Positions 11,022 through 61,660 of a DNA stretch of 64,000 nucleotides are shown here, one piece after another; position 1 is the first letter of the stretch; each line of letters starts with the position of its first letter. Location: NCBI GenBank assembly GCA_964017235.1, contig OZ024927.1, positions 23,393,160 through 23,457,159 of the forward strand. The letters run 5' to 3'. The notes under the pieces were generated by a model that was given only the letters and a program-made list of their open reading frames with translations, had not been told where the DNA came from and searched no databases. Origin of the DNA: Sabellastarte sp. h YS-2021. Lineage: Eukaryota > Annelida > Polychaeta > Sabellida > Sabellidae. The translations under genes were made by a program, and so were the position numbers.

Positions 11022-12257
11022 ATGCCAGCTTCACACCAGAGAGGCTTTTTACATAAGCTTAGGGTACTTGTGTTGTTTTTTTTTTAGTTTAATATTTTGA
11101 TTTTCATCATGATTTGCAGAGGACACATCTGAACCCAGCACCACCACCTGCCCTACAGCTAGCATCACAGCCACAGCCCCACCCAGCCCCCAGGAGAAGG
11201 AGATCATGCCCTGGATCCTTCAAAGACAAGATAAAGGCCTCCTGGCCGAATTAATAAATGCTGGCATCCGAGGATACCGGAATTTTGTCTTTTTTTACCT
11301 CAACGAAGAACGCATACACCACCACATCAAGTCAGTCACCAATTTCAGGAAGCCATTAGAAGTTGGATTTTAACTGGCAATTACGCTGAAACACAACCAG
11401 AGAAACCTACACCTCCTTGCAGTATCACTGGTTAGTTGGCCAAACCACCATCTGTAAATTCGTCCCCAAGGTCTCCTGAGCCTAGACTTCCTAGACAAAT
11501 ATTTGAACTGCCCCTGTAACCCTGTGAAGTGAAAAAGGGTGGTGCAGAAGTTCAGAACCAGTTGGAATGTCCCCCACACCCTTGGGACCTTAAACGGGAA
11601 GTATATCGCCATGAAGCCAAAGAAATTAGGCAGTGACTACAACTACAAGGTCTTCTTTTCCCTGGTGCTGCTTGCCCTGGTTGTTGCAGAATATAGATTC
11701 CTTTGGGTCAATGTGGGTTCAAGCAGATCTTTATCAGAAGCACAGATTTTCAACAGAAGTGATTTGCGTGAGAAGATCAAGGATGCCACCTTGGGTCTTC
11801 CGGTACCTGAACCACTGGAGGAAGGGAGGGCCAGATTTCCACTATTTCTTCCTGGGTGACACCTTTGCCTTGATGCCATGGATGGTGAAACCCTACAGCA
11901 GAAGACAACTCACACAGGAAGAAAGAATTGAAAACTGTAGCATCCCTACAGGAAGGAGGGTGGTGGAAAATGCCTTTGGAATATTAGCGAGCAGGTTCAG
12001 ATTACTACTGGGCACCATGGAGCAAAGGCCACGGGTTGTCAGAGACACTGTTTTTACATGACTGTGTAGTGTTGCACAACATGCTGAGGACACACTGGGG
12101 AGGAGCAAACAGGGCACCAACCCAAGCAAATAATGTAGCGGCCCTACAATATGAACAGGTGGTGTATGTGCCCAATGAAAACTACAGGAATCCTTGGAAG
12201 GAGCCAAACATCAACGAGACCTACTCAAAGACTACTTCAGTCACATGGGGGCATTGA
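11022..12257 (+). pseudogene. Harbinger (PIF) transposase pseudogene
   Basis: A first exon of 14 codons (MPASHQRGFLHKLR, 11022-11063) is followed by a small GT-AG intron (11064-11119), then the transposase body. Family features visible in order: LLAELINAGIRGYRNF (N-terminal part), LGTLNGKYIAMK, YNYKVFFSLVLLALV, VGSSRSLSEAQIFNRSDL, FALMPWMVKPYSRRQLT, GRRVVENAFGILASRFR, VVLHNMLR. These match the DDE core of HARBI1-like transposases. The gene is dead: stops near 11371 and 11456, frame changes near 11850 and 12050. Where the family has Asp (DGKH and S.DA), this copy has Asn (LNGKY) and Glu (SEAQ); the VENAFG Glu is kept. It faces the minus-strand partner gene. Confidence 0.85.
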
Positions 12258-15706: not shown

Positions 15707-15719
15707 AACAAGGTTTATG
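15707..15719 (+). repeat. Left target-site duplication of the LINE
   Basis: AACAAGGTTTATG here is repeated exactly at 22182-22194, directly after the A-rich tail of the LINE. A 13-bp perfect direct repeat at the expected position is the mark of target-primed insertion. Confidence 0.85.
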
Positions 15720-16315
15720 TGGATTTCAGCCATTGGGAATCAACATGGAAGTAAGAATGTAAATCAGCTCTGAATATATTCTTAACTACAGAGGTCCTTA
15801 AGAAACTCTCAACATGCTTATTAAAACATACTAGAAAATAATGTACATAGAACCAGGATACATCAAATGGATATCTATTGTGCTTCTAAAAAGTATGTTT
15901 TAAAGTGAAGAAAATAAATCTCTTGTGGAGAGCAAGGTGGATTAGAGGACAAAAGAAAGCGAAAATTGGACCAATATTACAGTGTTAAACAAGTGGTAAA
16001 CATGTCTTGTCCTTAATTAATTAGAAAGTGAAAATTGGACCAACATTGCAGTGTTAAACAAGTGGTGCACAAGTGTTGTGAACTTTGTGGTGCCCTTAAT
16101 TATTTGAAAAGTGACAGATGTTAAAAGTAGACCAATTCCTGACTGGGTGAAACGCATTGACATTGAATAAAGATTGACATTGGATAAAGAAGTATAAACA
16201 CTTTTGTGTTGAAAATAGTAAACAATCCTAAAGTCTTCAACACATTGGGATACTGGTTGTGTTACAGAACCCTTCGTTGTTCATTTGTTACCACTCTACC
16301 ACTCTGGAAATAACT
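15720..16315 (+). promoter_or_regulatory. LINE 5' UTR with monomer-like repeats
   Basis: The phrase GAAAATTGGACCAA(T/C)ATT, continuing to AGTGTTAAACAAGTGGT, occurs at 15961 and again at 16030. A third, partial unit starts near 16088 (CCCTTAATTATTTGAAAAGTG). In L1-type elements the 5' UTR houses the internal promoter, and tandem monomers there are a known design; this role is inferred. Confidence 0.5.
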
Positions 16316-17491
16316 ATGGCTGAGGACTTAGGAGCTTCCACACCCTATTCGTTCAAAAGGCCCAATACTGAAATGGATGTCAGTCCAGTTGGAACATTTA
16401 GTTTATCAGACATCAGTTCTCTTATGGATCGGAAGCTACAGCCAATACTAGAGCAGTTAGGAAAAATACCAGATGCTGCAAAATTGGAAAATAGAATACA
16501 GCAACTTGAATCTGAAAATAGGTTTCTGAGAGAGAAAATTGAAAGACAAGAGAGATATTCGAGGAGAGAAAATATCAGAGTGCTAGGCATAAAGGAGCAT
16601 CCATATGAAAATTGTGAAGAAAAACTGCTGAATGTGTTTAAATCGTTCTGCTCAGATTTCAACGACCGTACTTTTATACAAGTTCATAGACTTGGCAGAC
16701 TACAAAAATACGGTGAAAGACCAATAATGGCCAGGTTTCATCACTTGAAAGACAAAATATCACTCCTACGTCACTCCAGTGAAATCTACCAGAGATGTCA
16801 AGTTAGGATTATGGATGATTTGCCACAAGAAGTAGAAGCCAGACGTAGGACACTACTTCCAATCTTGCATGCAGCTAAATCCTATCCGGAATACTGTCGT
16901 GAAGACAGCAAGCCAAAGCTAGTTGAAGATAAGCTTCGTATAAATGGCAAGACCTATGGGGTCCACAATTTGTCACAGCTACCAAAACAGTTGCATTTGG
17001 AGAATGTGATGACACCATCCAAAAACAACATAACTGCGTTCTTTAGCAAATTCTCACCATTGTCAAACCATTACCCCTCAGAATTTAAAGTAAATGGCGA
17101 AGCCTACAACTGCATGGAACAGTTCTTTATGGTTACTAAAGCTGAGGAGTTTGGGGATCAGGAAGCAATCAGATCACTTAAAAGAGAGTCAGATCCTGTT
17201 ACAATGAAAAACATTGGGAAAAAAATTAAGCACTTTGACAATCACCGATGGTTGAGTGTTGCTGAAGGGAAGATTAAAGCAGGCTTAGTTTCAAAATTTT
17301 CCCAGAATCCGTTTCTGAAAGACTTCTTGCTATCCACCGGAGATACTAAACTAGTTGAGGCGAGCCAAGACAAAATCTGGAGCGCTGGAAAATCCTTGAA
17401 AGACAAAGACTTATGGAAGCCAGAGAAATGGAGCGGGAAGAATTGGTTGGGCGAAATGCTTATGAAAGTCAGATCTGAACTCAAAAAGTAG
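16316..17491 (+). CDS. LINE ORF1 protein with C-terminal NADAR domain
   Basis: I start at the ATG at 16316 (MAEDLGAST); the open frame upstream has no ATG. The 391-residue protein has a heptad-rich coiled coil (about 42-85, KLENRIQQLESENRFLREKI), then the L1 ORF1-type RRM (NIRVLGIKE near 86, VHRLGR near 123) and C-terminal domain (RRTLLPILHAAKSY near 177 to GKTYGVHNL near 219). These form the trimeric RNA chaperone that coats LINE RNA. Residues about 238-391 are extra and match NADAR/YbiA: FFSKFSPLSN, a CMEQFFMVTKAEEFGD motif with Glu268 and Lys275, KFSQNPFLKDFLLSTGDTKL VEAS, DKIWSAG (Asp352, Trp355) and WLGEMLMKVRSEL. NADAR proteins act on NAD/ADP-ribose-type N-glycosidic bonds. All signature positions are present with no stop, so the domain is probably active. 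Its role in the element is inferred. Confidence 0.9.
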   Translation: MAEDLGASTPYSFKRPNTEMDVSPVGTFSLSDISSLMDRKLQPILEQLGKIPDAAKLENRIQQLESENRFLREKIERQERYSRRENIRVLGIKEHPYENCEEKLLNVFKSFCSDFNDRTFIQVHRLGRLQKYGERPIMARFHHLKDKISLLRHSSEIYQRCQVRIMDDLPQEVEARRRTLLPILHAAKSYPEYCREDSKPKLVEDKLRINGKTYGVHNLSQLPKQLHLENVMTPSKNNITAFFSKFSPLSNHYPSEFKVNGEAYNCMEQFFMVTKAEEFGDQEAIRSLKRESDPVTMKNIGKKIKHFDNHRWLSVAEGKIKAGLVSKFSQNPFLKDFLLSTGDTKLVEASQDKIWSAGKSLKDKDLWKPEKWSGKNWLGEMLMKVRSELKK

Positions 17492-18237: not shown

Positions 18238-21200
18238 ATGGTGGATTCTATAACACTATCCTCTTTTAACTGTAGAGGTTTAAGAAATATTGATAAACGA
18301 ATTGGGCTATTTCACTGGCTAAAAGATATGCACAAGGGTATCATTTTTTTACAAGAAACCCACTCAATAGAATCAGATGAAACAACATGGAAAAGAGAAT
18401 GGGGTTCAAAAATTTACTTTTCGCATTGTTCTACTACAAAACAGGGAGTCGCAATTTTGATGCCCTCAAATGTAGATATTAATATATCTAAAGTAGAGTG
18501 CGATAAAGATGGGAGATTAATCGCTCTAACCTGCTTAATTGAAGAAAATGAATTAGTTCTTATAAATATATATGCACCAACCAAAGATAAGTATGCACTG
18601 CAAATCAAATTTTTAAATTACCTTCATACAATTATTGACAAGTACAGCGACAAAAGGGTCATGATTGGTGGCGATTTTAATGTTTGCCTTAATCCCAGTA
18701 AAGATAAACTAGGGGGCAGGGTCGAAGAACAAAGTCCTTACTGTAAAAATCTAATAAATCTTCTTGAAGAATACTCATTGATTGACATTTGGCGCATAAG
18801 AAATGACTCAGTGAAACAATTCACTAGGCGAGAAAAATCACGTTCAGGATTAGTACAATCACGACTTGACTATTGGTTCATATCTTCATCCCTACAGTAT
18901 TGTACAAACAAGGTCTACATCAAACCTGGTTATCAATCAGATCATAGTATCCTGGATCTCCATTTACAGCTATTAGAGATTCAAAGGAGGGGTAAGGGTA
19001 CTTGGAAATTTAATAATGGTCTTCTCAATGACAAAACATATGTAAACCTCATTAAATCAACAATTTTGAAAGTGATAAAAGAAGTAAATTTTGATGATAA
19101 GAACTTGTTATGGGAATTTTTAAAATGTCAAATTAGATCGGACACAATTTTATACTCTGGACAAAAAGCAAAACATAGGCGTCAAAGAGAAATGGAGCTC
19201 TCGACCAAACTCGATTATCTAGAAAAAAATTTAGACAAAAATGAATGTAACTATGTAGATTACCAATTAATAAAAACGGAGTGGGAAAATCTACAAAACG
19301 AAAAAACTAAAGGTGCCATGGTAAGATCAAAAGCCAAATGGGTCGAATATGGAGAAAAAAATTCTAAATATTTCTTTAACCTTGAAAAAAGAAACTATAG
19401 CACAAAATATATAAAGAAAATAATCAAACCAAATGGTACTGATACATCAGAACCAAATGAAATTCTGCAAGAACAAGTAGGTTTCTATGCAGACTTGTAT
19501 TCCTGTAAATGTAAAGAGGACTCCTACACTGAGCTCCGCAAATTATTTTTAAATAACAGTTCTATCCCTAAGCTAGATATGGAAGCTAAACAATTATGCA
19601 ATGAACCCCTATCTTTACTAGAAATATCTAATGCATTAAAAGAAATGGCCCTTGATAAATCACCCGGCCCTGACGGTCTAACAACAAACTTTTACAAGTG
19701 TTTCTGGGACGACTTAAAACAACCACTCCTAGACAGTTACCTTTTTGCCTTTAAACATGGTGAACTAGCAGATGGTCAAAGAAGAGGAACTCTAAACTTG
19801 ATACCTAAAAAGGACAAAGATCTACGCTATTTGAAATCATGGCGTCCTGTTTCCCTCCTGGCCACAGATTACAAGATTTTAGCTAAAGCCCTAGCCATAA
19901 GATTGCAAAAAGTTATATCATCATTAGTGCATCCAGACCAAGTGGGATACATTAAGGGCAGGTACATAGGGGAAAATATTATTACAATTAATGATTTAAT
20001 ACAGACTTCATCAATCTATCAAAAACCAGGTATCTTAGCCTTGATTGATTTCGAAAAAGCATTCGATACTGTAGAATGGTCATTCTTATTTGAGACCCTG
20101 GAAACTTTTGACCTTGGTGGAAATTTTGCAACATGGATAAGACTCCTATATACAAACATATATTCTTGTATAACGAACAACGGTTATATTTCCAATTACT
20201 TTCCACTAAGTAGAGGTATCAGACAGGGATGCCCAATTTCTGCTCTGCTATTTATTTTAGTTGCAGAAATATTGTCAATAAATGTAAGATCAGACGCTTC
20301 CATCAAAGGAATCACCATAAAGGAAACCGAATTCAAGATTGCCCAGCTAGCAGACGACACTACTGTCTTTCTGTCAGATATACAGTCACTGAAGCAAGTT
20401 ATCACACGCTTCAATAAATTTGGGCTAATTTCTGGTCTCAAGGTAAATCTAGACAAAACTGAACTGATTCCTTTGGGTGGATACCATCTACAGCACTCAC
20501 AATTAAAAGGGACTTTAAAAGGGATAAAACCTGTAAATGGGCCTTTCAAAACGCTAGGAGTATGGTTCACAAAAGACATAGATCTAGCGAACCGCTTAAA
20601 TTTTATTGAAAAAGTGGAAAATATAAAGAAAATTCTTAACATTTGGAAATCGAGGACATTATCTTGGAAGGGTAAAATAACTATTCTGAAATCACTTATT
20701 GTACCACAGCTAATACACCTACTTGGCACTGTTTATGTTCCCAATAGTTTACTTGAGACAATTGACAAATTATTCCTTGATTTCCTATGGTCAGGCAAAC
20801 CACCAAGAATAAAGAAGAGTACAATCATAAGCGGATATGGTGAAGGCGGTCTCAAAATGCCTGATATATACAGCATACATGCTTCGCAAAAAATAATGTG
20901 GATTAAACGTCTAACAGATAACAATAACCGAAAATGGAAAAAACTCGAGCAATTACTCTTGGGTATTGACATCAACCTGTTCTCCTTTAGGTTACCAGAG
21001 AACATGTATAAGCAGCTTGCACGAACACAGTACCATCGACAATTATTAGAATGTTGGTTTGATATTAAAAATTGTACACCCATTCACTGTAATGAAATAA
21101 TGAGCGAATACTTGTTGTACAACAAATACATACAAATAGGTGGCTCCTGCTTGACTGAATCTATCATAAATCAAAATAAGGAGTATTTAAAAACCCAAAT

Positions 21201-21843
21201 CAAGGACCTCTTAGACTCTACGGGCTGTTTCCTAAATTTTGAAGATTTCAAAGCTAACTTGCCATTCAAGATGTCTCAGTTAGAATATAGAGGACTAATA
21301 CATGCAATTCCAAAAAATTGGCAAGAGAAACTCAAAACAAAACCTGGCAGGCTGGACTCTAACCCAACAGACTTAAGCCTCAAAGTCAAAAACAGAGTCA
21401 GGCCTTTGAATAAATTAAGCAGCAAAGACATTTATTGGGAATTAATCAATAGGAAGTCAAAATGTCCCACATCACTTGAAACATGGATAGATCTTTTCCC
21501 TTTTTTGGAAAATATTGATTGGACAGACATTTTTAACTTGTCATACAGAATTACACATGAACCGCCCTTGCAAACTTTTCAGTATAAAGTGTTAAACCGA
21601 ACGCTAAACTGTAAACACAATCTACACAACTGGAAGATAGCAGTTTCAGATTTATGTACATATTGCGATAATAATTCCATTGACACTCTAGAGCATCACC
21701 TAGTACTTTGCCCTGTCAGTGCTGATTTCTGGGAGCATCTTAAGCTATGGTTGAGTACCAACACTGAAATAACTTTACAATTCTCCATCTGCGAAATACT
21801 TTTGGGGATACCATATGCAAAAAACCGACCTCCTTTTGCCTAA
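18238..21843 (+). CDS. LINE ORF2: APE endonuclease and reverse transcriptase
   Basis: The 1201-residue polyprotein nicks target DNA and reverse-transcribes the element RNA at the nick. Visible parts: an APE-type endonuclease (1-240) with SSFNCRGLR, LQETHS (Glu40), GGDFNVCLN (Asp146, Asn148) and SDHSIL (His236); a reverse transcriptase (about 480-770) with LDKSPGPDGLT, LIPKKDKD, SWRPVSLL, ALIDFEKAFDTVEW (Asp604), GIRQGCPISALLF and QLADDTTVF (catalytic Asp706/Asp707, with Leu-Ala-Asp-Asp rather than Tyr/Phe-Ala-Asp-Asp); and a C-terminal CCHC zinc knuckle (Cys1140, Cys1143, His1153 or 1154, Cys1158). The catalytic residues are all present. The frame stops at KNRPPFA, but homology continues in another frame to about 22027, so the last ~60 residues are cut off. 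Confidence 0.95.
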   Translation: MVDSITLSSFNCRGLRNIDKRIGLFHWLKDMHKGIIFLQETHSIESDETTWKREWGSKIYFSHCSTTKQGVAILMPSNVDINISKVECDKDGRLIALTCLIEENELVLINIYAPTKDKYALQIKFLNYLHTIIDKYSDKRVMIGGDFNVCLNPSKDKLGGRVEEQSPYCKNLINLLEEYSLIDIWRIRNDSVKQFTRREKSRSGLVQSRLDYWFISSSLQYCTNKVYIKPGYQSDHSILDLHLQLLEIQRRGKGTWKFNNGLLNDKTYVNLIKSTILKVIKEVNFDDKNLLWEFLKCQIRSDTILYSGQKAKHRRQREMELSTKLDYLEKNLDKNECNYVDYQLIKTEWENLQNEKTKGAMVRSKAKWVEYGEKNSKYFFNLEKRNYSTKYIKKIIKPNGTDTSEPNEILQEQVGFYADLYSCKCKEDSYTELRKLFLNNSSIPKLDMEAKQLCNEPLSLLEISNALKEMALDKSPGPDGLTTNFYKCFWDDLKQPLLDSYLFAFKHGELADGQRRGTLNLIPKKDKDLRYLKSWRPVSLLATDYKILAKALAIRLQKVISSLVHPDQVGYIKGRYIGENIITINDLIQTSSIYQKPGILALIDFEKAFDTVEWSFLFETLETFDLGGNFATWIRLLYTNIYSCITNNGYISNYFPLSRGIRQGCPISALLFILVAEILSINVRSDASIKGITIKETEFKIAQLADDTTVFLSDIQSLKQVITRFNKFGLISGLKVNLDKTELIPLGGYHLQHSQLKGTLKGIKPVNGPFKTLGVWFTKDIDLANRLNFIEKVENIKKILNIWKSRTLSWKGKITILKSLIVPQLIHLLGTVYVPNSLLETIDKLFLDFLWSGKPPRIKKSTIISGYGEGGLKMPDIYSIHASQKIMWIKRLTDNNNRKWKKLEQLLLGIDINLFSFRLPENMYKQLARTQYHRQLLECWFDIKNCTPIHCNEIMSEYLLYNKYIQIGGSCLTESIINQNKEYLKTQIKDLLDSTGCFLNFEDFKANLPFKMSQLEYRGLIHAIPKNWQEKLKTKPGRLDSNPTDLSLKVKNRVRPLNKLSSKDIYWELINRKSKCPTSLETWIDLFPFLENIDWTDIFNLSYRITHEPPLQTFQYKVLNRTLNCKHNLHNWKIAVSDLCTYCDNNSIDTLEHHLVLCPVSADFWEHLKLWLSTNTEITLQFSICEILLGIPYAKNRPPFA

Positions 21844-22027
21844 TTATCTTTTTCTTTTGGGAAAATGGTATATAAACAAAAGAAAGACAGAAGAAAACCC
21901 AATTCATTTCCAGGATTTCCTTTCCCAGCTCAAGTGCAAAGTCGCTATTTTAGATGATGTTTACTCAAAAAAAGAAGGAAGTGATATTGTCCAAAATGTT
22001 TATCAAACAATTTTAAACATACTTTAA
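21815..22027 (+). pseudogene. Frame-shifted C-terminus of LINE ORF2
   Basis: A frame overlapping the end of ORF2 encodes LLLPNYLFLLGKWYINKRK and LKCKVAILDDVYSKKEG, the usual final segment of L1-group ORF2 proteins. It is out of phase with the main ORF2 by one base. The switch falls at a run of six A at 21819-21824; one A fewer would keep a single frame. This may be a true mutation, a sequencing error in a homopolymer, or ribosomal slippage. Confidence 0.75.
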
Positions 22028-22157
22028 TTAAAGAACCATATTTGCATATTACCCGTCTGAAAATATTGTTTTTCTACATGCCACTTTTATGTTATTTGTC
22101 TTTCTAAGTTGTTGTCATTGTCATTTGTAATGTCTTTTGTCATCATTATATGTAGTA

Positions 22158-22181: not shown

Positions 22182-22194
22182 AACAAGGTTTATG
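22182..22194 (+). repeat. Right target-site duplication of the LINE
   Basis: AACAAGGTTTATG, identical to 15707-15719, immediately follows the A-rich tail. Confidence 0.85.
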
Positions 22195-48349: not shown

Positions 48350-51300
48350 CTAGGTACCAGTCTGTTGGTGGATCTGCTGAGCAGCCACAACCGGTCCAAG
48401 ATGGTAGAGCTCTGAGTCAGCCCAAGCCACATCCTTCAGGTAGAATTGGGTGAAGGTATTATGAGATTTCCAGTGGCAGGCTGCTATGATCTGCTCTAAG
48501 GAAACTCCCGATTGGAAGGCCTTAGAGGCAGCAAAGGCCCTGACATCATGAGCTTTAACTTGATGTAGGGTGTGGGCCTGATGATCAGAGAGCTCATAGC
48601 ATAGGATCACAGTTTGCTTGATCCATGAGGAGATAGTGGCAGGGGAGATGTCTTTGTCGAAACCCTTCTTGAAGGAGACAAAGACTAACTCCTTGTGCTG
48701 CCTGAGGTCTGAAGTCCTGTCCAAATAGTAGCGCAAAGCTCTGACTGGACAGAGGGATCTGTCAGACTTGAGGGATTTATCTAGAGTAGGAGCCAGGGCT
48801 GGTATGACCACTGGGGCTACACTCTCTGGACCCTCCTTGGCCAGCTGGTTCTTGGAGAGTAAGCTGGGGGATGGAAAAAGAGACACCTTAGACCAGTCCG
48901 ACTGGTGCCTGATGTTCTTATGCTGCCATGCATGGATTTCACTCCGTCTTTTGCCAGAGCCCAGGGCCAAAAGGAAGACAGTCTTGAAGGTCACATGCTT
49001 CAGAGATGCCTCCCTAAGTGGTTCGAAGGGAGCCTTTGTCAGCTGGTGTAGTACCAGGGAAAGGTTCCAGGAGGGTATTCCCCTCCGCCCTTTGGGTCTG
49101 TCTCTGTGGAAACTTTCCAAGAGACGAGTGAGGTTATCATTTTTGCTGATATTGATTGATGTGTCACCCAGTTTATCAGCAATGGCAGATCTGTATCCAT
49201 CAATGGTGCTGGGCTGTAATTTCTTGTCCTCAAAGAGGTACATTAAGAAGTCAGCTACTGACTTTACAGGTGGTGACCTGAAGTCCACCTGATTAGTGTC
49301 GCACCACTTTGTAAAAATGGTCCACTTTGCCTCATAGACTGATCTGGTTGACTTTCTTTGAGGAGCCTCAATTCTTGCTGCCACTGCCTCAGACAAGCCC
49401 CGTTCTTTGATTTTTGTGGCTCTAGGGGCCAGGCATGGAGATTTAGATTTGTCAGATTTCTGTGAGGGATCTGATTGAAGGGCTGTGTTAGCAGACTGGG
49501 CAGGTTGGGTAGGCTGAGGGGGACCTGACTGGACATGTTCACCAAGTCCCAAAACCAAGGCATGTTGGGCCACCCCGGGGCAATCAGAATGAGTCTCTTG
49601 CACGGGGAGTCCAGTAGCTTCTCCACCACTTTGCCCAATATGGCGGTCGGTGGGAAGGCGTATGCATCCAGATCGTCCCATGGCAGGGTGAGTGCATCCA
49701 CTGCTACAGCCAGGGAGTCCGGTACCGGAGAGACAAACTGAGGTAACTTGTGGTTGAACCTCGTGGCAAATAGGTCTATTTGAGGCCGGTGCCATTGATT
49801 GCATAGTTGTTGGAATACTTCCGGAAGGAGGGACCATTCTGTTTGGATGGTCTGACCCAGCCTGGATAGCTTGTCTGCTATCACATTTAAATGGCCTGGA
49901 ATATGTCGGGCTTTTAGTGTCACTTGTCGCTGGGAACACCAGGTCAAGATTCTCCACAGTAGGGCACACAGTGGGCCCGACCTCATGCCTCCTTCTTTGT
50001 TTATGTAAGCTACCACTGTAGTATTGTCGGTTGCCACCAGAACCATTTTGTCTACACAAAGGTCTTGGAACTCTTTGAGGGCCAGGAAAACTGCTTTGAG
50101 TTCTAGATAATTTATGTGCAGTTTGCTTTCCGGCACCGACCAGGACCCTCTTGCAGTGAACTCGTTTAAGTGAGTGCCCCACCCTTCTTTTGACGCGTCT
50201 GTAAATATCTGCAGAGCATGTCTTACTGGGTGTAATGGTTGGCCTTGAAGCACATTGTCTTCCTCTAGCCACCATTGTAAGTGGGGATGCAGGGACCTTG
50301 GTAGGGGAATAATCTTCTCTAGAGATTCTGGTACCCTCCAGTTGTTCTTGAGATGTCACTGTATGGGTCTCATGTGCAGTCGGCCGATGTGAACCTGTTT
50401 TTCTGTGGCTGTTAGTAGGCCTATCAGGGACATGAACTGTCGGACCGGACAGGCCGGTAACGACAGGAGTAGATGTATCTTGTCCTGAAGGCTTTGCCAC
50501 CGGTCCAGGGTCGGTCTGACCCGGCCGGACCTGAGGTCGAACTGGTAACCTACAAAGTCGAAGATCTGTTTGGGTTCCAGCTCTGATTTTTCCAAATTCA
50601 CCAGCCAACCTAGGTCCTGGCACATTTTGATCAGGATTTGGGTATGTTGGAGACAAGTTTTGCGGGATTTGGATCTCACCAACCAGTCGTCTAGGTACTG
50701 GTGGATTCTTATACCCTTGTGTGTGGCCATCAGTTTCACCTCCTTTGCGACCACAGTAAACTCCAAGGGTACTGTGGACAGTCCGAACGGCAGGGCCTTG
50801 AACTGGTATGTTCGCCCTTGGACGTGAAATCTCAAATATTTCCTGGATTGTTCCTGTATTGGAATATGGAAATAGGCGTCCTGAAAGTCTATGGATGTGA
50901 CCCATTCCCCTTGTCGGAGTGATGACCTGATGGTTTCCGGTGTCTCCATCTTGAATTTCTCCACCTTGAGGAAGAGATTTAGCTTGCTCAGGTCTAGGAT
51001 AGGTCTCCACCTGTTGTTTGGTTTCGGAACTAGAAATAGCCGGTTGAAAAACCCTAGGGACTTTTGATTTTGAACTAGTTCCACTGCATTTTTGTCGATA
51101 AGTTGATGTAATGCCTCCATCAGGTAGCTGTCCCTGTGAGGATTGACATAGCAACTTACAACTGTGGGATACCTTGTGAGTCTGGGTCGAATCCGGAAGG
51201 GGAGGGGGTAACCCTCTCTCAAAATTTGAGTTACTTTCGGACCGGCCCCCAGCTCCAGCCAAACTTGCCAAAAGTGTTGGAATCGAGCCCCTACAGGATA

Positions 51301-51568
51301 AGTTGTGACAACATTTCTGACATTTGTTACAGGTTGGGCATAAGACAATTGAGTGACACAAGAAGCACCTTTCACATATTTTACTGTATAATCTGTTTGA
51401 AAGGAATGACAACCTGCTACCCCGGGACTTATTTCTTTCTTTTGCGAAAGCCCGGGGGCAGTATGAGCATGGTTCACAACATTTAATTTTACAAAAGTGT
51501 CTTTGTATTGTCTTTGTTCTGTAACTGGGCTCCCGGCCAGCAGTCCTTCCTGTGATTTGAAAACACAT
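48350..51568 (-). CDS. DIRS copy A tyrosine recombinase frame
   Basis: A 1072-codon open frame. The last ~380 residues (about 49480-48350) are the tyrosine recombinase that integrates the circular DNA copy: LALGSGKRRSEIHAW (first Arg), LHQVKAHDVRAFAAS (His and second Arg), ACHWKSHNTFTQFY (His/Trp and nucleophile Tyr1043). The first ~690 codons overlap the RT/RNase H frame in another phase and are probably mostly non-coding, although the first ~90 residues are strikingly Cys-rich (CEPCSYC, CERCFLC, CPTCNKCQKCC). The true recombinase start is inside the pol overlap; I cannot place it. Copies B and C have only broken versions. Confidence 0.85.
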   Translation of the reverse strand: MCFQITGRTAGREPSYRTKTIQRHFCKIKCCEPCSYCPRAFAKERNKSRGSRLSFLSNRLYSKICERCFLCHSIVLCPTCNKCQKCCHNLSCRGSIPTLLASLAGAGGRSESNSNFERGLPPPLPDSTQTHKVSHSCKLLCQSSQGQLPDGGITSTYRQKCSGTSSKSKVPRVFQPAISSSETKQQVETYPRPEQAKSLPQGGEIQDGDTGNHQVITPTRGMGHIHRLSGRLFPYSNTGTIQEIFEISRPRANIPVQGPAVRTVHSTLGVYCGRKGGETDGHTQGYKNPPVPRRLVGEIQIPQNLSPTYPNPDQNVPGPRLAGEFGKIRAGTQTDLRLCRLPVRPQVRPGQTDPGPVAKPSGQDTSTPVVTGLSGPTVHVPDRPTNSHRKTGSHRPTAHETHTVTSQEQLEGTRISREDYSPTKVPASPLTMVARGRQCASRPTITPSKTCSADIYRRVKRRVGHSLKRVHCKRVLVGAGKQTAHKLSRTQSSFPGPQRVPRPLCRQNGSGGNRQYYSGSLHKQRRRHEVGPTVCPTVENLDLVFPATSDTKSPTYSRPFKCDSRQAIQAGSDHPNRMVPPSGSIPTTMQSMAPASNRPICHEVQPQVTSVCLSGTGLPGCSSGCTHPAMGRSGCIRLPTDRHIGQSGGEATGLPVQETHSDCPGVAQHALVLGLGEHVQSGPPQPTQPAQSANTALQSDPSQKSDKSKSPCLAPRATKIKERGLSEAVAARIEAPQRKSTRSVYEAKWTIFTKWCDTNQVDFRSPPVKSVADFLMYLFEDKKLQPSTIDGYRSAIADKLGDTSINISKNDNLTRLLESFHRDRPKGRRGIPSWNLSLVLHQLTKAPFEPLREASLKHVTFKTVFLLALGSGKRRSEIHAWQHKNIRHQSDWSKVSLFPSPSLLSKNQLAKEGPESVAPVVIPALAPTLDKSLKSDRSLCPVRALRYYLDRTSDLRQHKELVFVSFKKGFDKDISPATISSWIKQTVILCYELSDHQAHTLHQVKAHDVRAFAASKAFQSGVSLEQIIAACHWKSHNTFTQFYLKDVAWADSELYHLGPVVAAQQIHQQTGT
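49264..50355 (-). CDS. DIRS copy A RNase H and methyltransferase-like part of pol
   Basis: In the same frame as the RT but after an in-frame TGA. The RNase H shows ALQIFTDASKEGWG (first Asp), INYLELKAVFLAL (Glu) and VLVATDNTTVVAYI (Asp), and it degrades the RNA strand of the hybrid. It is followed by KARHIPGHLNVIADKLSR and the post-RNase H region of DIRS elements (DLFATRFNHKLPQFVSPVPD, DAYAFPP, LILIAPGWPNMPW), often described as Dam-like methyltransferase-related. The end overlaps the recombinase frame by about 200 bases. Confidence 0.85.
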   Translation of the reverse strand, partial: HLKNNWRVPESLEKIIPLPRSLHPHLQWWLEEDNVLQGQPLHPVRHALQIFTDASKEGWGTHLNEFTARGSWSVPESKLHINYLELKAVFLALKEFQDLCVDKMVLVATDNTTVVAYINKEGGMRSGPLCALLWRILTWCSQRQVTLKARHIPGHLNVIADKLSRLGQTIQTEWSLLPEVFQQLCNQWHRPQIDLFATRFNHKLPQFVSPVPDSLAVAVDALTLPWDDLDAYAFPPTAILGKVVEKLLDSPCKRLILIAPGWPNMPWFWDLVNMSSQVPLSLPNLPSLLTQPFNQIPHRNLTNLNLHAWPLEPQKSKNGACLRQWQQELRLLKESQPDQSMRQSGPFLQSGATLIRWTSGHHL

Positions 51569-51774
51569 TGATTGTCATTTATATGACTGCTGGCCCTTGG
51601 CTGGTCGCGAGGAGTAGTAAGGTGATTTGCCCTTGCCTCTCTTGCTTTGTCCTCTGTATCCCACATTTTTCCAAGCTGGACGCTCTGGCTTTTTATTGTC
51701 TGGTCGTTTTTCCGGCCGCTCATAGGGGTGGAAGCGGGCTTTCTTCCCAGTGTGAATCTGTCCTTTCGATTCAA
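50356..51774 (-). CDS. DIRS copy A reverse transcriptase
   Basis: The RT part (about 51150-50356) has FFNRLFLVPKPNNRWRPILD, SIDFQDAYFHIPI (catalytic Asp), KALPFGLSTVPLEFT, HQYLDDWLV (YLDD box) and FVGYQFDL, with the FNRLFLVPK/LPFGLS wording typical of DIRS elements. The upstream ~190 codons overlap the end of gag and the Cys-rich stretch of another frame; the open frame has no ATG at its start, so expression probably depends on frameshifting or reinitiation. The frame ends at a TGA (50356-50358) just after HMRPIQ. In copy B the same codon is TGG, so this is likely a nonsense change. Confidence 0.88.
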   Translation of the reverse strand: MNRKDRFTLGRKPASTPMSGRKNDQTIKSQSVQLGKMWDTEDKAREARANHLTTPRDQPRASSHINDNQCVFKSQEGLLAGSPVTEQRQYKDTFVKLNVVNHAHTAPGLSQKKEISPGVAGCHSFQTDYTVKYVKGASCVTQLSYAQPVTNVRNVVTTYPVGARFQHFWQVWLELGAGPKVTQILREGYPLPFRIRPRLTRYPTVVSCYVNPHRDSYLMEALHQLIDKNAVELVQNQKSLGFFNRLFLVPKPNNRWRPILDLSKLNLFLKVEKFKMETPETIRSSLRQGEWVTSIDFQDAYFHIPIQEQSRKYLRFHVQGRTYQFKALPFGLSTVPLEFTVVAKEVKLMATHKGIRIHQYLDDWLVRSKSRKTCLQHTQILIKMCQDLGWLVNLEKSELEPKQIFDFVGYQFDLRSGRVRPTLDRWQSLQDKIHLLLSLPACPVRQFMSLIGLLTATEKQVHIGRLHMRPIQ

Positions 51775-53665
51775 AGGTGGCTATGTCCTGCTCTGCCTGC
51801 TTTAAGGCTTCTTCTGGGAAAAGCGTAGACATGTTAAGCGTACCTGTTTGGAGAGCAGCCAAGGTGTCCGGTTTTATACCAGGTTTGAGGTGAGACAGGT
51901 ATGCATCCCTCCTGGTGAGTGTAGAGTTGGCCGCTGTAACGAAAACAAAGTCAGTCAAATGTTCAAAGGTCTTGGCCATAGCTTGGGTGATACCCGAGTT
52001 AAAATCCAGAAGGAACTGCAACTCCTCAGCAGCACCAGAGACCTTGGATGAAGATTTTCCCTTACTAAGTTCCAACTTAATGGCTTTTAACTGTGATCTC
52101 ATATTGTCCTGCACTTTGTTCAGACACCTATTAAATGCTGCTGCCTGATTGCACATGGTGGATGCTTCGCGGGCTGCCTTCTCCCAGCGTCGTAGATTGT
52201 CCTGAGAGATCTGACGCGAAGGGGGAGGGGTGGAGGCAATACCTGCTGCTCTGGCAATCCTGCTGTAGGTGCTGTTTACTTTGGATGAGTCGGTATTCCA
52301 AGAAGACAATGACTTGCCAGAAGAGACCTTTTGTGGATCAGATACCAACCCGTACCATTTCTGTTGTGATCTGGCTGGGCGTATAAATTGGTCTTTAAGT
52401 AAACCACCCGCCTCTGAGCTGCGAGACGGGTAGCCTTCCACCAAAGTCAGGTTAAGTTTTCCCATTTTCTTGCACAGCCACTCATCCGTAGGCATTTTAA
52501 CCGACACCTTCCCTGTGGGTTGAGTCCTTGGGCCAGCAAAAGGGTTGTCGTCCGAGGTAGATGTTGTGGTGTCAATATCCGGAATGTCTGTCCACCCCAT
52601 GTAGGACCTGATCCCCCTCATCGTCTCCCTGTAATTCTGATCCTCTGAGAGGGTCTGGTCGGGGTCAGTCACAGTGGCATCTGGGTCGTTGTCGGACAAC
52701 TCCCCCTCTTCTACAAAGATATCCACTGGGGGTCGGTCGGAAAACTCAGATTCGGAATCAGTGTCCATGGAAGCTGAGTCATGTTTGCCGGCCGGCACTG
52801 ACGACGATTTACTGGAGACCTGAAGAAAAGGTGAGCCGGTTCCAGGTAAATCTGAAAGTTGGTCGGTGTTTGGTTTGTCCTTAGGCAATTTGCTGGTCGA
52901 TTGACCCTTGGAGCCAATCTGAGAGTCACCATGCAAATCTGAAGACTTCTTGACAGTAGATGAAAGCGATTTGTCCGTTGCCTGTCTCTGAGGAGAGTGG
53001 TCGGTGCTGGACAAATCTGAGGCTGGTAGTTTTTCAGTCGGTCGGATGAAGGGGTCCGAAGATTTAACTACACCAACTGGTGGGGTGTGCGTCGGTGTGA
53101 TTTTAACCGGAGCAAAGGTCGGTTCTTGACTATCCAAGGTTTTTGCAATCAGAAGAGCTTCTAATCTATTAAACCTCTCCGACCATTTAAGGTCTAACTT
53201 GTCAATCCGGGAATCTGCTGAGGATTTGTGAGCTTGAGGTGGCGATTTAGAAGGCTTTCCTTCAGTAGTCTTGTGGTGTTTAGCGGAAGTTTTCTTTTCC
53301 TGGGGTTCTGTTTTCTTCTTTTTCTTTTCAGAACTCAAACTCGGGGATTTGACTACCCCCTGGGCATCCACAGCTCCCACTACCGTCACAGAGGACGGGT
53401 CGATGAGAGAGGAACTAGCAGAGTCTTTGTTTGGTGTATCAGAAGATTTCTTAAGCTCTCGCTTTTCCTTTTTAATCCTATAGCTAGGAGTGGACAACTG
53501 TAAGCGTTGTTCTTCTGTGAGGGAGTTACAAGCAGGGCAGTCATTATGTGAAATACAAGGATCTGAGCCTTTACTTTTTTCTCTACATCTAGCGCAGAAA
53601 CTATGGCTGTCGAAACTGGCCATAATATGTCCACAGCTCCCGTGTTTCTGGCTAGGAGAAGACAT
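51575..53665 (-). CDS. DIRS copy A gag-like protein
   Basis: I start at the ATG at 53665 (MSSPSQKHGSCG), since the frame upstream has no ATG. The ~696-residue protein has an N-terminal Cys/His cluster (CGH, FCARCREKSKG, CISHNDCPACN) that could bind zinc, a long Ser/Lys/Pro-rich disordered middle, a conserved MRGIRSYMGWTDIPD segment (near 350), a helical core (NLRRWEKAAREASTMCNQAA, AEELQFLLDFNSGITQAMAK) and a basic Gly/Tyr-rich tail (KGKSPYYSSRPAKGQQSYK). This fits the structural ORF1 of DIRS elements. Its 3' part overlaps the pol frame. Confidence 0.8.
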   Translation of the reverse strand: MSSPSQKHGSCGHIMASFDSHSFCARCREKSKGSDPCISHNDCPACNSLTEEQRLQLSTPSYRIKKEKRELKKSSDTPNKDSASSSLIDPSSVTVVGAVDAQGVVKSPSLSSEKKKKKTEPQEKKTSAKHHKTTEGKPSKSPPQAHKSSADSRIDKLDLKWSERFNRLEALLIAKTLDSQEPTFAPVKITPTHTPPVGVVKSSDPFIRPTEKLPASDLSSTDHSPQRQATDKSLSSTVKKSSDLHGDSQIGSKGQSTSKLPKDKPNTDQLSDLPGTGSPFLQVSSKSSSVPAGKHDSASMDTDSESEFSDRPPVDIFVEEGELSDNDPDATVTDPDQTLSEDQNYRETMRGIRSYMGWTDIPDIDTTTSTSDDNPFAGPRTQPTGKVSVKMPTDEWLCKKMGKLNLTLVEGYPSRSSEAGGLLKDQFIRPARSQQKWYGLVSDPQKVSSGKSLSSWNTDSSKVNSTYSRIARAAGIASTPPPSRQISQDNLRRWEKAAREASTMCNQAAAFNRCLNKVQDNMRSQLKAIKLELSKGKSSSKVSGAAEELQFLLDFNSGITQAMAKTFEHLTDFVFVTAANSTLTRRDAYLSHLKPGIKPDTLAALQTGTLNMSTLFPEEALKQAEQDIATFESKGQIHTGKKARFHPYERPEKRPDNKKPERPAWKNVGYRGQSKRGKGKSPYYSSRPAKGQQSYK

Positions 53666-53818
53666 AATGCACTGATAGAATGTGAAAATAAGATACAAAC
53701 GTTCTATGACACTCCCACAACAATGTTATATAACTTCCGAAACACTTCTTGAAGATAAACTGACAAATTCCAAAAAACAAATTCACTCTCAAAATTTTGT
53801 GTACACAAGGCACGCGCC

Positions 53819-54037: not shown

Positions 54038-54471
54038 GTTCTTCCATTTCTTATGCTCAACCTGGGGTGATAATGCATTTCTGTGGGGTCTAATTTTGAC
54101 ATCAACATATAATCTAGTCTGTATAACCAGTGACAGATGTCTTCAAATATCTTTGCCTTTGTGGTACAGGAAGCATATGACCCCAACTGTTATATATTCA
54201 GCTGTAGCTTTTGTCTGGATTTTTGGAAACTTATTTGAACTTCTGGCATGGTATGAATCTATGGAACTTAACAAAACAAACTTCACATGTGTAGAAAATC
54301 AAGAATTCTTTGATGGTCCTCGGCAAACTGCGATCAGAGGAATCTCAATCATAGTGGAACTAATAATTCCTATGACAAGTCTGGTAGTGAGTTATGGAAT
54401 CATACTCCGCAAGATCAGAAAACAGAGAAGGGTTATGGACAGGAAAAACACAAGATCTGCTGCACAACAAG
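54038..54471 (+). CDS. Class A GPCR, exon with TM3-TM5
   Basis: The acceptor GACTTCAG|GTTC at 54037/54038 restores frame with the first exon. TM3 ends in STYNLVCITSDRCLQI, a variant of the DRY motif (SDRC), followed by PLWYRKHMTP. TM4 (VIYSAVAFVWIFGNLFELLA) has the conserved Trp. The second extracellular loop has two N-glycosylation sites (NKTNFTC) and a Cys. TM5 (ISIIVELIIPMTSLVVSYGI) has Pro and Tyr and ends in the basic IRKQRRVMDRKN. The exon ends AG|GTAAGA, phase 1. DIRS copy A ends about 26 bases upstream of this acceptor. Confidence 0.75.
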
Positions 54472-54583
54472 GTAAGAAAAGTCAGTGATAGAGGCTGTTC
54501 AAATTAAGTCAATACAATTATTATTGACAAAATGTTCATTCACAATGGAATAATAATGAACAGGTTTTTGCTGCTTTTCTCAG

Positions 54584-60829: not shown

Positions 60830-61660
60830 ATTAAGATTTGTCAGATTTCTGTGAGGGATCTGATCGAATGGCTGTGAACAGGCTGGACAGATTGGGCAGG
60901 CTCAGCGGGATGTGGCTGGACATGGCCACTAGATCCCAAAACCAAGGCATGTTGGGCCACCCCGGAGCAATCAGAATGATTCTTTTACATGGGGAGTCTT
61001 GCAACTTCACCACTTTGCCCAATATGGCTGATGGTGAGAAGGTGTATGCTTTTAGATCCTACCATGGCCGACTGAGCACATCCACTGCTGTGGCCAGGGG
61101 ATCCGGTACCGGTGACACAAACACAGGCAACCTGTTGTTGAACCTCGTGGCAAATAAGTCTATTTGGGCCGGTGCCACCTGCTGCATAGAGTGGAAGACC
61201 TGTGGAAGGAGAAACCACTGTTTGGATGGTCAGGCCTAGCCTGGATAGCTTGTCTGCTACCACATTCGGCCGGCCTGGAATGTGTCGTGCTTTAGTCACT
61301 TGTTTCCTGGTACAACAGGTCAAGATTCTCCATAGTAGGGCACAAAGTGGGCACGACCTCATGACTCCTTCCTTGTTTATGTATGTCACTACTGTGGTGT
61401 TGTCAGTTGCTACAGGCACTATCTTGTTGAGCAAAGGTCTTGGAACTCTTTTGAGGCCAGAAAGAACTGCTTTAAGTTCTAGATAGTTTATATGCAGCTT
61501 GCCTCCTGGAGGGGACCAGGTTGCTCTTGCAAGTGCTTGTCTAAGCGAGCGCCCCACCCTTCTATTGATGCGTCTGTAATTATTTGCAGAGCATGTTTTA
61601 TTGGGTGTAATGGTTGGACTGTAAGTACATTGTCTTCCTTCAGCCATCATTGTAAAGGGG
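60830..61660 (-). pseudogene. RNase H / MT-like pseudogene of DIRS copy B
   Basis: Recognisable text: KLHINYLELKAVLSGLK, VPVATDNTTVVTYINKEG, KARHIPGRPNVVADKLSRLG, and IILIAPGWPNMPWFWDLVAM. Frames change several times. Confidence 0.8.

What the first reader, a model, noticed from the sequence alone, without database searches (positions are those of the whole stretch)
16316..17491. LINE ORF1 carries a C-terminal NADAR (YbiA-like) ADP-ribose-chemistry domain
Seen: after the usual coiled coil, RRM and CTD of an L1-type ORF1, about 154 further residues hold the NADAR signatures PLSN, an E...K motif (EQFFMVTKAEEFGD), KFSQNP..KDFLLSTGD..LVEAS, DKIW..G and a WLGE.LM.VR end, all in one open frame. Known: NADAR proteins act on NAD/ADP-ribose N-glycosidic bonds and members have been reported to remove ADP-ribose from guanosine; clams make pierisin-like toxins/enzymes that ADP-ribosylate guanine in DNA. 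Inference: the LINE may carry its own eraser of ADP-ribosylated guanine on its RNA, cDNA or target DNA, a counter-defence against host ADP-ribosyltransferases, or a sensor of NAD metabolites. ORF1p coats the RNA in cis, so the activity would be delivered directly to the template.
Basis: partly seen in the sequence, partly recalled or inferred. Interest (0 to 1): 0.92.

Follow-up and report, generated by a model that had tools for sequence, protein, structure and literature searches.

The report
Jumping gene carrying an ADP-ribose eraser
A recently mobile animal LINE retrotransposon has an enzyme domain of the ADP-ribose-removing NADAR kind fused to its RNA-coating protein; the fusion is real, shared by many copies and kept by natural selection, but a similar fusion was already mentioned in print for oyster elements.

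The parts
15707..15719 (.). 5' copy of 13-bp target-site duplication (AACAAGGTTTATG)
   Evidence: exact repeat with 22182-22194; homology with independent copies starts at 15732 (L004, L005) or 15745 (L003), so 15720-15731 is not shared by them
15720..16315 (+). 5' untranslated region, with two 57-bp repeats at 15954-16010 and 16023-16079 (87.7% identical)
   Evidence: self-comparison; copies L003-L005 share it from 15732/15745 on, after unrelated flanks
16316..17491 (+). ORF1: coiled coil + RRM + CTD + NADAR fusion protein, 391 aa
16571..16807 (+). RRM of ORF1 (residues 86-164, boundaries set by me)
16808..17026 (+). L1-type C-terminal domain (residues 165-237, boundaries set by me)
   Evidence: same match
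17039..17488 (+). NADAR domain (residues 242-391); active-site residues E268, K275, K298, F307, W312, E348, D352, W355
18238..21843 (+). ORF2: AP-type endonuclease + reverse transcriptase + C-terminal zinc knuckle, 1201 aa
21844..22181 (+). 3' end of the element with A-rich tail; another frame stays open past the ORF2 stop
22182..22194 (.). 3' copy of the target-site duplication

Best explanation
This is a recently mobile L1/Tx1-type LINE whose ORF1 protein is a single-chain fusion of the usual RNA-coating chaperone (coiled coil, RRM, CTD) with a C-terminal NADAR glycosidase of the YbiA class. The fusion arose by one or few captures and has been kept by selection while the family split into dozens of lineages in this genome. 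Proposed working: ORF1p trimers coat the element RNA in cis, so each RNP carries many NADAR active sites. These cleave the N-glycosidic bond of ADP-ribose (or a related ribosyl adduct) on guanine in the element's RNA, its cDNA or the nicked target, protecting the template from host ADP-ribosyltransferases. Shown here: domain identity, predicted fold, conservation of the catalytic site, purifying selection, multi-copy spread. Inferred: trimer and cis-coating (from human L1), catalysis, the substrate, and the benefit to the element.
Against: No activity has been measured. The R93 position is not Arg in 86 of 90 copies, and K50, essential in E. coli C7 NADAR, is replaced in 12 of 90, so substrates may differ. 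YbiA's established activity is on riboflavin intermediates, and this ORF1 scores 6.9e-39 against that NCBIfam model. In-vitro activity on guanosine-ADPr does not prove a role: E. coli YbiA does not rescue cells from YarT (PMC11125620, passages). No host ADP-ribosyltransferase acting on LINE nucleic acid is known to me; ZAP (PARP13) restricts human LINE-1 (listing only), but it is, as I recall, catalytically inactive.
Confidence: 0.45

Rival explanations
1. The NADAR acts on small NAD-derived or ribosylated metabolites (cyclic ADP-ribose-type immune signals, or riboflavin-pathway N-glycosides). The element blunts a host signal rather than cleaning its own nucleic acid.
For: TIGR02464 hit 6.9e-39. 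PMC9503650 posits that viral NADARs, phage ones above all, might prefer soluble ADPr derivatives (passages). Replacement of R93 and, in some copies, of K50 hints at a changed ligand.
Against: Fusion to an RNA-coating protein is an odd delivery route for a diffusible substrate. The same paper favours macromolecular targets for NADARs of eukaryotic RNA viruses. Positions K75, Y84, W89 and D130 are largely kept.
Confidence: 0.2
2. It processes RNA ends or RNA-repair products (for example ADP-ribose phosphates or ADP-ribosylated 5' ends) of the element RNA. This resembles the RNA-processing role suggested for NADAR in Ectocarpus Gypsy and oyster Tx1 elements.
For: The suggestion in PMC12477816 (passage) and the link of NADAR to RNA repair in PMC9503650 (passages); fusion to an RNA-binding protein.
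Against: The NADAR chemistry described in PMC11543638 is on bonds to bases (section 12). The element's only plus-strand frames of 100 codons or more are ORF1 and ORF2, with no RNA-end partner enzyme.
Confidence: 0.15
3. A binding or structural module: the NADAR fold binds nucleic acid or ADP-ribose on host factors and no longer catalyses.
For: K50 replaced by L/Q/I in 12 of 90 copies, while a pair of such copies, L027/L097, is still constrained (dN/dS 0.12 over RRM to NADAR).
Against: The two catalytic acids are among the most conserved of 299 columns scored (E268 invariant, E348 rank 23), which binding alone would not demand.
Confidence: 0.12
4. Chance or annotation artefact: a decayed host gene fragment read through in one LINE copy.
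For: None found.
Against: Five near-identical copies at separate sites, the window's included, and 38 NADAR clusters share it; pooled dN/dS 0.30.
Confidence: 0.01

Closest known systems
Tx1 LINE families of Crassostrea gigas with NADAR-bearing ORF1 (Repbase families, cited in PMC12477816)
   Same: LINE ORF1 protein that contains a YbiA-family NADAR domain
   Different: The paper gives one sentence, calling the hits divergent. Their letters were not available here, so kinship with this element was not compared. Selection, catalytic residues, copy spread and origin are added here.
Ectocarpus Gypsy lineage (e.g. [quoted passage not shown]
   Same: A retrotransposon that captured a YbiA-family NADAR
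   Different: LTR element, domain on Pol, brown-alga host; the paper's blastp searches point to bacterial relatives
Phytophthora nicotianae NADAR (8bau) and E. coli YbiA (2b3w)
   Different: Stand-alone proteins; the window copy has K for R79, F for Y84, N for D86, A for R93 and a one-residue deletion before the D130 equivalent
DarT1-associated NADAR antitoxins (BC4488 class)
   Same: Removal of ADP-ribose from guanine is the proposed reaction
   Different: Here the YbiA-type glutamate, and no neighbouring ADP-ribosyltransferase in the element
Human LINE-1 ORF1p (2yko)
   Different: Human ORF1p has no NADAR (recalled)

Membership tests
NADAR superfamily (PF08719) | Profile match above the curated cut-off | tested here: met
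   136.7 bits against 35.1
NADAR superfamily (PF08719) | YbiA fold | tested here: met
NADAR superfamily (PF08719) | Catalytic E/K (E43, K50) and charged residue of the last strand (E125) | tested here: met
   E268, K275, E348 in the window copy
NADAR superfamily (PF08719) | N-glycosidase activity on ADP-ribosyl-guanine or riboflavin intermediates | not testable with these tools
   needs protein
YbiA class within NADAR | Glutamate (not Asp or His) at the E125 position | tested here: met
   E348; E in 87 of 89 own-genome copies
BC4488 / DarT1-linked class | Aspartate at that position and a DarT neighbour | tested here: not met
   Glutamate; the element's only plus-strand frames of 100 codons or more are ORF1 and ORF2
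L1-type (L1/Tx1) LINE | ORF1 with coiled coil + RRM + CTD | tested here: met
L1-type (L1/Tx1) LINE | ORF2 with AP-type endonuclease and reverse transcriptase, nearest to L1 ORF2p | tested here: met
   among solved structures, human L1 ORF2p E 2.4e-107 against R2 7.5e-23
L1-type (L1/Tx1) LINE | Target-site duplication, variable 5' truncation, dispersed copies | tested here: met
   13-bp duplication; L002 and L014 begin to match at window 16230 and 17002, L003-L005 at 15732-15745
Tx1 clade in the strict sense | Reverse transcriptase groups with Tx1 rather than L1 | not tested
   No Tx1 reference reverse transcriptase was compared; the clade name is taken by analogy with PMC12477816

The most novel reading that the evidence does not exclude
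A cellular LINE carries its own eraser of guanine ADP-ribosylation in the protein that coats its RNA, as a counter-defence against a host nucleic-acid ADP-ribosyltransferase. That would imply such a transferase polices retroelements in this animal lineage.
Probability: 0.3. Interest if true: 0.88.

Novelty: new member of a known kind. Interest (0 to 1): 0.56.

Why it matters
It makes a question testable: do hosts ADP-ribosylate retrotransposon nucleic acid, and do retrotransposons answer? The physiological role of animal NADARs is stated to be unclear (PMC11125620, passages). A domain kept by selection inside an RNA-coating ORF1p of a young, multi-copy LINE points to nucleic acid as the relevant place of action. 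NADAR in LINEs (here and in oyster) and in Gypsy elements of a brown alga (PMC12477816, passages) suggests that retroelements recruited it more than once, parallel to NADAR in positive-strand RNA viruses (PMC9503650, passages).

Tried and rejected
Rejected: a one-copy artefact; relaxed drift on the NADAR part; a BC4488/DarT-type NADAR.

Led nowhere: viral-contig scan with P0001 (10 stretches matched a pattern, none a relative). Literature searches for NADAR with retrotransposon, NADAR domain alone (15 papers), NADAR/LINE/ORF1, YbiA with transposable element, DUF1768 with transposon, and Tx1/LINE/ORF1/oyster gave, in the rows listed, one relevant report, PMC12477816; one search listed 20 of 104 papers. 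The nematode paper PMC7853720 mentions NADAR/YbiA genes in another context (passage). PMC10294476 lists L1-Tx1 among the most ubiquitous LINE types of molluscs; YbiA occurs 0 times there and NADAR was not searched in it. A DNA-level count of copies did not complete. The first dN/dS run was wrong because loci of minus-strand matches are not turned round; it is superseded. The residue mapping for columns 300-311 was off by two and is corrected; the rank and entropy figures that I quote concern columns that were right.

Rows dropped before counts: five NADAR fragments (P0004, P0006, P0056, P0057, P0070) and P0065, P0066, P0069 were not in the tree; 15 near-duplicate stand-alone rows and P0001 (identical to L001) were left out of the tree, and copies with under 130 NADAR letters were left out of the 75% clusters; one search used pairs with at least 230 shared codons and finite dS.

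Full report
WHAT IS THERE. ORF 16316-17491 (+) encodes 391 residues without a stop; the frame is open upstream to at least a GTG at 16259, and the ATG at 16316 has A at -3 and G at +4. ORF2 (18238-21843, 1201 aa) follows after 746 bp and carries Exo_endo_phos, RVT_1 and zf-RVT. The best solved relative of ORF2 is human L1 ORF2p, E 2.4e-107; R2 proteins follow at 7.5e-23. The element is bounded by a 13-bp exact duplication at 15707-15719 and 22182-22194 next to an A-rich 3' end. In copies of the same family the homology starts at window 15732 (L004, L005) or 15745 (L003) after unrelated flanks, so the window's bases 15720-15731 are not shared with them; two copies match only from 16230 and 17002 on (L002, L014). 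These are hallmarks of LINE insertion by independent events.

ACTIVE SITE. I used the residues that PMC11543638 reports (section 12 read); the numbering was checked on the printed 8bau letters. In the window copy: E43=E268, K50=K275, K75=K298, G78=G301, R79=K302, V81=I304, Y84=F307, D86=N309, W89=W312, R93=A316, E125=E348, D130=D352, W133=W355. In the 14 fusions tabulated from the protein database E43, W89 and E125 are kept in 14 of 14, and K50 in 13 (Arg in one). In 90 own-genome copies: E43 90/90, E125 87/89, D130 89/89, W89 89/90, Phe or Tyr at Y84 89/90, K75 84/90, Lys or Arg at R79 76/90, K50 78/90 (Leu 8, Gln 3, Ile 1), Trp at W133 49/89, and Arg at R93 in only 4/90. Results against a plain copy of known NADARs are thus the R93 position, which also varies among stand-alone NADARs, and the 12 copies without K50. 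The six of those 12 that stand in the tree lie in one seven-row group (98/87) together with L025, which keeps the lysine. In E. coli C7 NADAR the lysine is reported as essential, although K95R still hydrolyses in vitro.

COPIES AND SELECTION. The window's genome (1.786 Gb, 647 contigs, no name given) returned 106 scored matches out of 2848 first-look candidates, all at E 1.2e-64 or better. By my count 17 of 106 contain a stop and 101 of 106 reach residue 387 or beyond. Five, the window's own included, are 99-100% identical to the window ORF1, full length and open. The 90 copies I compared (30 + 40 + 20) give 38 clusters at 75% NADAR identity, counting copies with at least 130 NADAR letters. 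They were chosen from the best-scoring hits, mostly with long open frames, so they under-represent dead copies. Nei-Gojobori counts over 27 disjoint pairs with dS up to 0.05 give dN/dS NADAR 0.30 (49.2/9681 against 39.8/2391 sites), CTD 0.32, RRM 0.44. The deficit of nonsynonymous changes in NADAR has Fisher p 6e-8, and NADAR does not differ from RRM+CTD (p 0.76). Nine disjoint pairs at dS 0.03-0.6 give 0.31, 0.26 and 0.28 for NADAR, CTD and RRM; they include the odd pair L009/L013 (0.55 overall, 51 nonsynonymous changes in NADAR). Single close pairs are noisy, and three of the 27 exceed 1 overall (L076/L098 1.20, L065/L071 2.37, L118/L119 1.09). Of 265 pairs with a finite dS over at least 230 codons, 115 lie below dS 1.2; the rest are near or at saturation. 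Mean column entropy is 1.76 in NADAR, 2.04 in CTD and 2.09 in RRM; the coiled coil was not scored. In the protein-database alignment NADAR identity exceeds RRM identity in 62 of 78 pairs and CTD identity in 50 of 78. Among 60 loci with 1.5-kb flanks (30 of them the stand-alone NADAR loci below) ORF2 sequence was found in 13: downstream and collinear with ORF1 in 12, on the other strand in one (L027); for many others the flank may be too short.

ORIGIN. In a NADAR tree 15 fusions lie on one side of a branch against 37 others (support 84/96, not starred). With 52 fusions against 24 others the support is 80/86. In a tree of the ORF1 part alone, without NADAR, 17 fusions (three of them, P0006, P0027 and P0044, end inside the NADAR) form one group against 8 NADAR-less ORF1s (97/99). 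One capture, followed by long descent inside the LINE lineage, is the simplest reading. Sampling was driven by fusion queries, so other captures could be missed.

PRIOR KNOWLEDGE. [quoted passage not shown] My other searches listed no further report; preprints and most subscription journals are not held. The kind is therefore known.

MECHANISM. Best supported: an active N-glycosidase delivered in cis on the element RNA. The NADAR/YbiA proteins tested in PMC11125620 hydrolysed guanosine-ADPr, although E. coli YbiA did not rescue cells from YarT (passages). Clams hold a guanine-N2 ADP-ribosyltransferase, CARP-1 (PMC11209040, passages). Whether this host is a clam was not established. Shown: domain, predicted fold, conservation, selection, mobility. 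Inferred: catalysis, substrate, counter-defence. Rivals are small-molecule substrates, RNA-end processing and a pure binding module.

ALSO SEEN. The 30 best PF08719 hits of the same genome (L031-L060; 150 scored of 2705 candidates, all 150 over the cut-off) are not ORF1-length fusions. They sit in open frames of 167-179 codons (161 from the ATG in L031) inside a second dispersed repeat, whose flanks all 30 share with L031, with tandem units of about 166 bp. Its nature is unresolved. An AU test does not reject grouping its NADAR with the LINE fusions (p 0.29), though the best tree puts it beside stand-alone NADARs that I take to be mostly bacterial (few of these proteins are named).

On re-reading the calls I mended several counts and wordings (115 rather than 116 pairs; 12 collinear ORF2 hits of 13; the limits of the entropy and cluster counts; papers and rows dropped). 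None required a change of odds.

Noticed in passing
L031-L060 (e.g. L031:1462-1947; own genome C18:8625889-8626323): A second mobile-looking NADAR carrier in the same genome: a stand-alone ORF (161 aa in L031) in a dispersed repeat with ~166-bp tandem units downstream. 29 of 30 copies are 93-100% identical to L031 over the NADAR stretch; L048 was out of register in that simple count but lies 0.04 changes per column away in the tree. It resembles Helentron/'pearl'-type repeats of molluscs (recalled, not tested). In the 3 kb upstream (L121) the only frame of 70 aa or more is one of 86 aa on the minus strand.
   Followed up: partly
L019, L021, L027, L028, L029, L079, L082, L089, L090, L092, L096, L097: 12 of 90 ORF1-NADAR copies have Leu, Gln or Ile in place of the lysine that is essential in E. 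coli C7 NADAR, yet pair L027/L097 shows dN/dS 0.12 over RRM to NADAR at dS 1.3. A possible shift of substrate within one lineage.
   Followed up: partly
21830-22030: Past the ORF2 stop (ORF2 ends at 21843) another frame stays open for about 60 codons (GKWYINKRKTEEN and on), which looks like an ORF2 tail; this copy's ORF2 may have lost its last residues.
   Followed up: no
48350-53698 (-): A DIRS/Ngaro-like element (my label): reverse transcriptase in 50356-51774 and a weak tyrosine-recombinase match (below its Pfam cut-off) in 48350-51568, with a 707-aa frame at 51575-53698 without a Pfam hit; a remnant with RVT_3 lies at 60985-61650 (-).
   Followed up: partly
11633-12061 (+): Fragment of a DDE_Tnp_4 transposase (Harbinger-like by my recollection), E 3.2e-6.
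   Followed up: no
54096-54488 (+): Exon-like frame of a rhodopsin-family GPCR, 7tm_1 E 1.3e-16: the one host-gene-like piece among the six window frames that I scanned there.
   Followed up: no
15954-16010 and 16023-16079: Two 57-bp repeats (87.7% identical) in the LINE 5' UTR, shared by copies L003-L005; possible promoter monomers.
   Followed up: no
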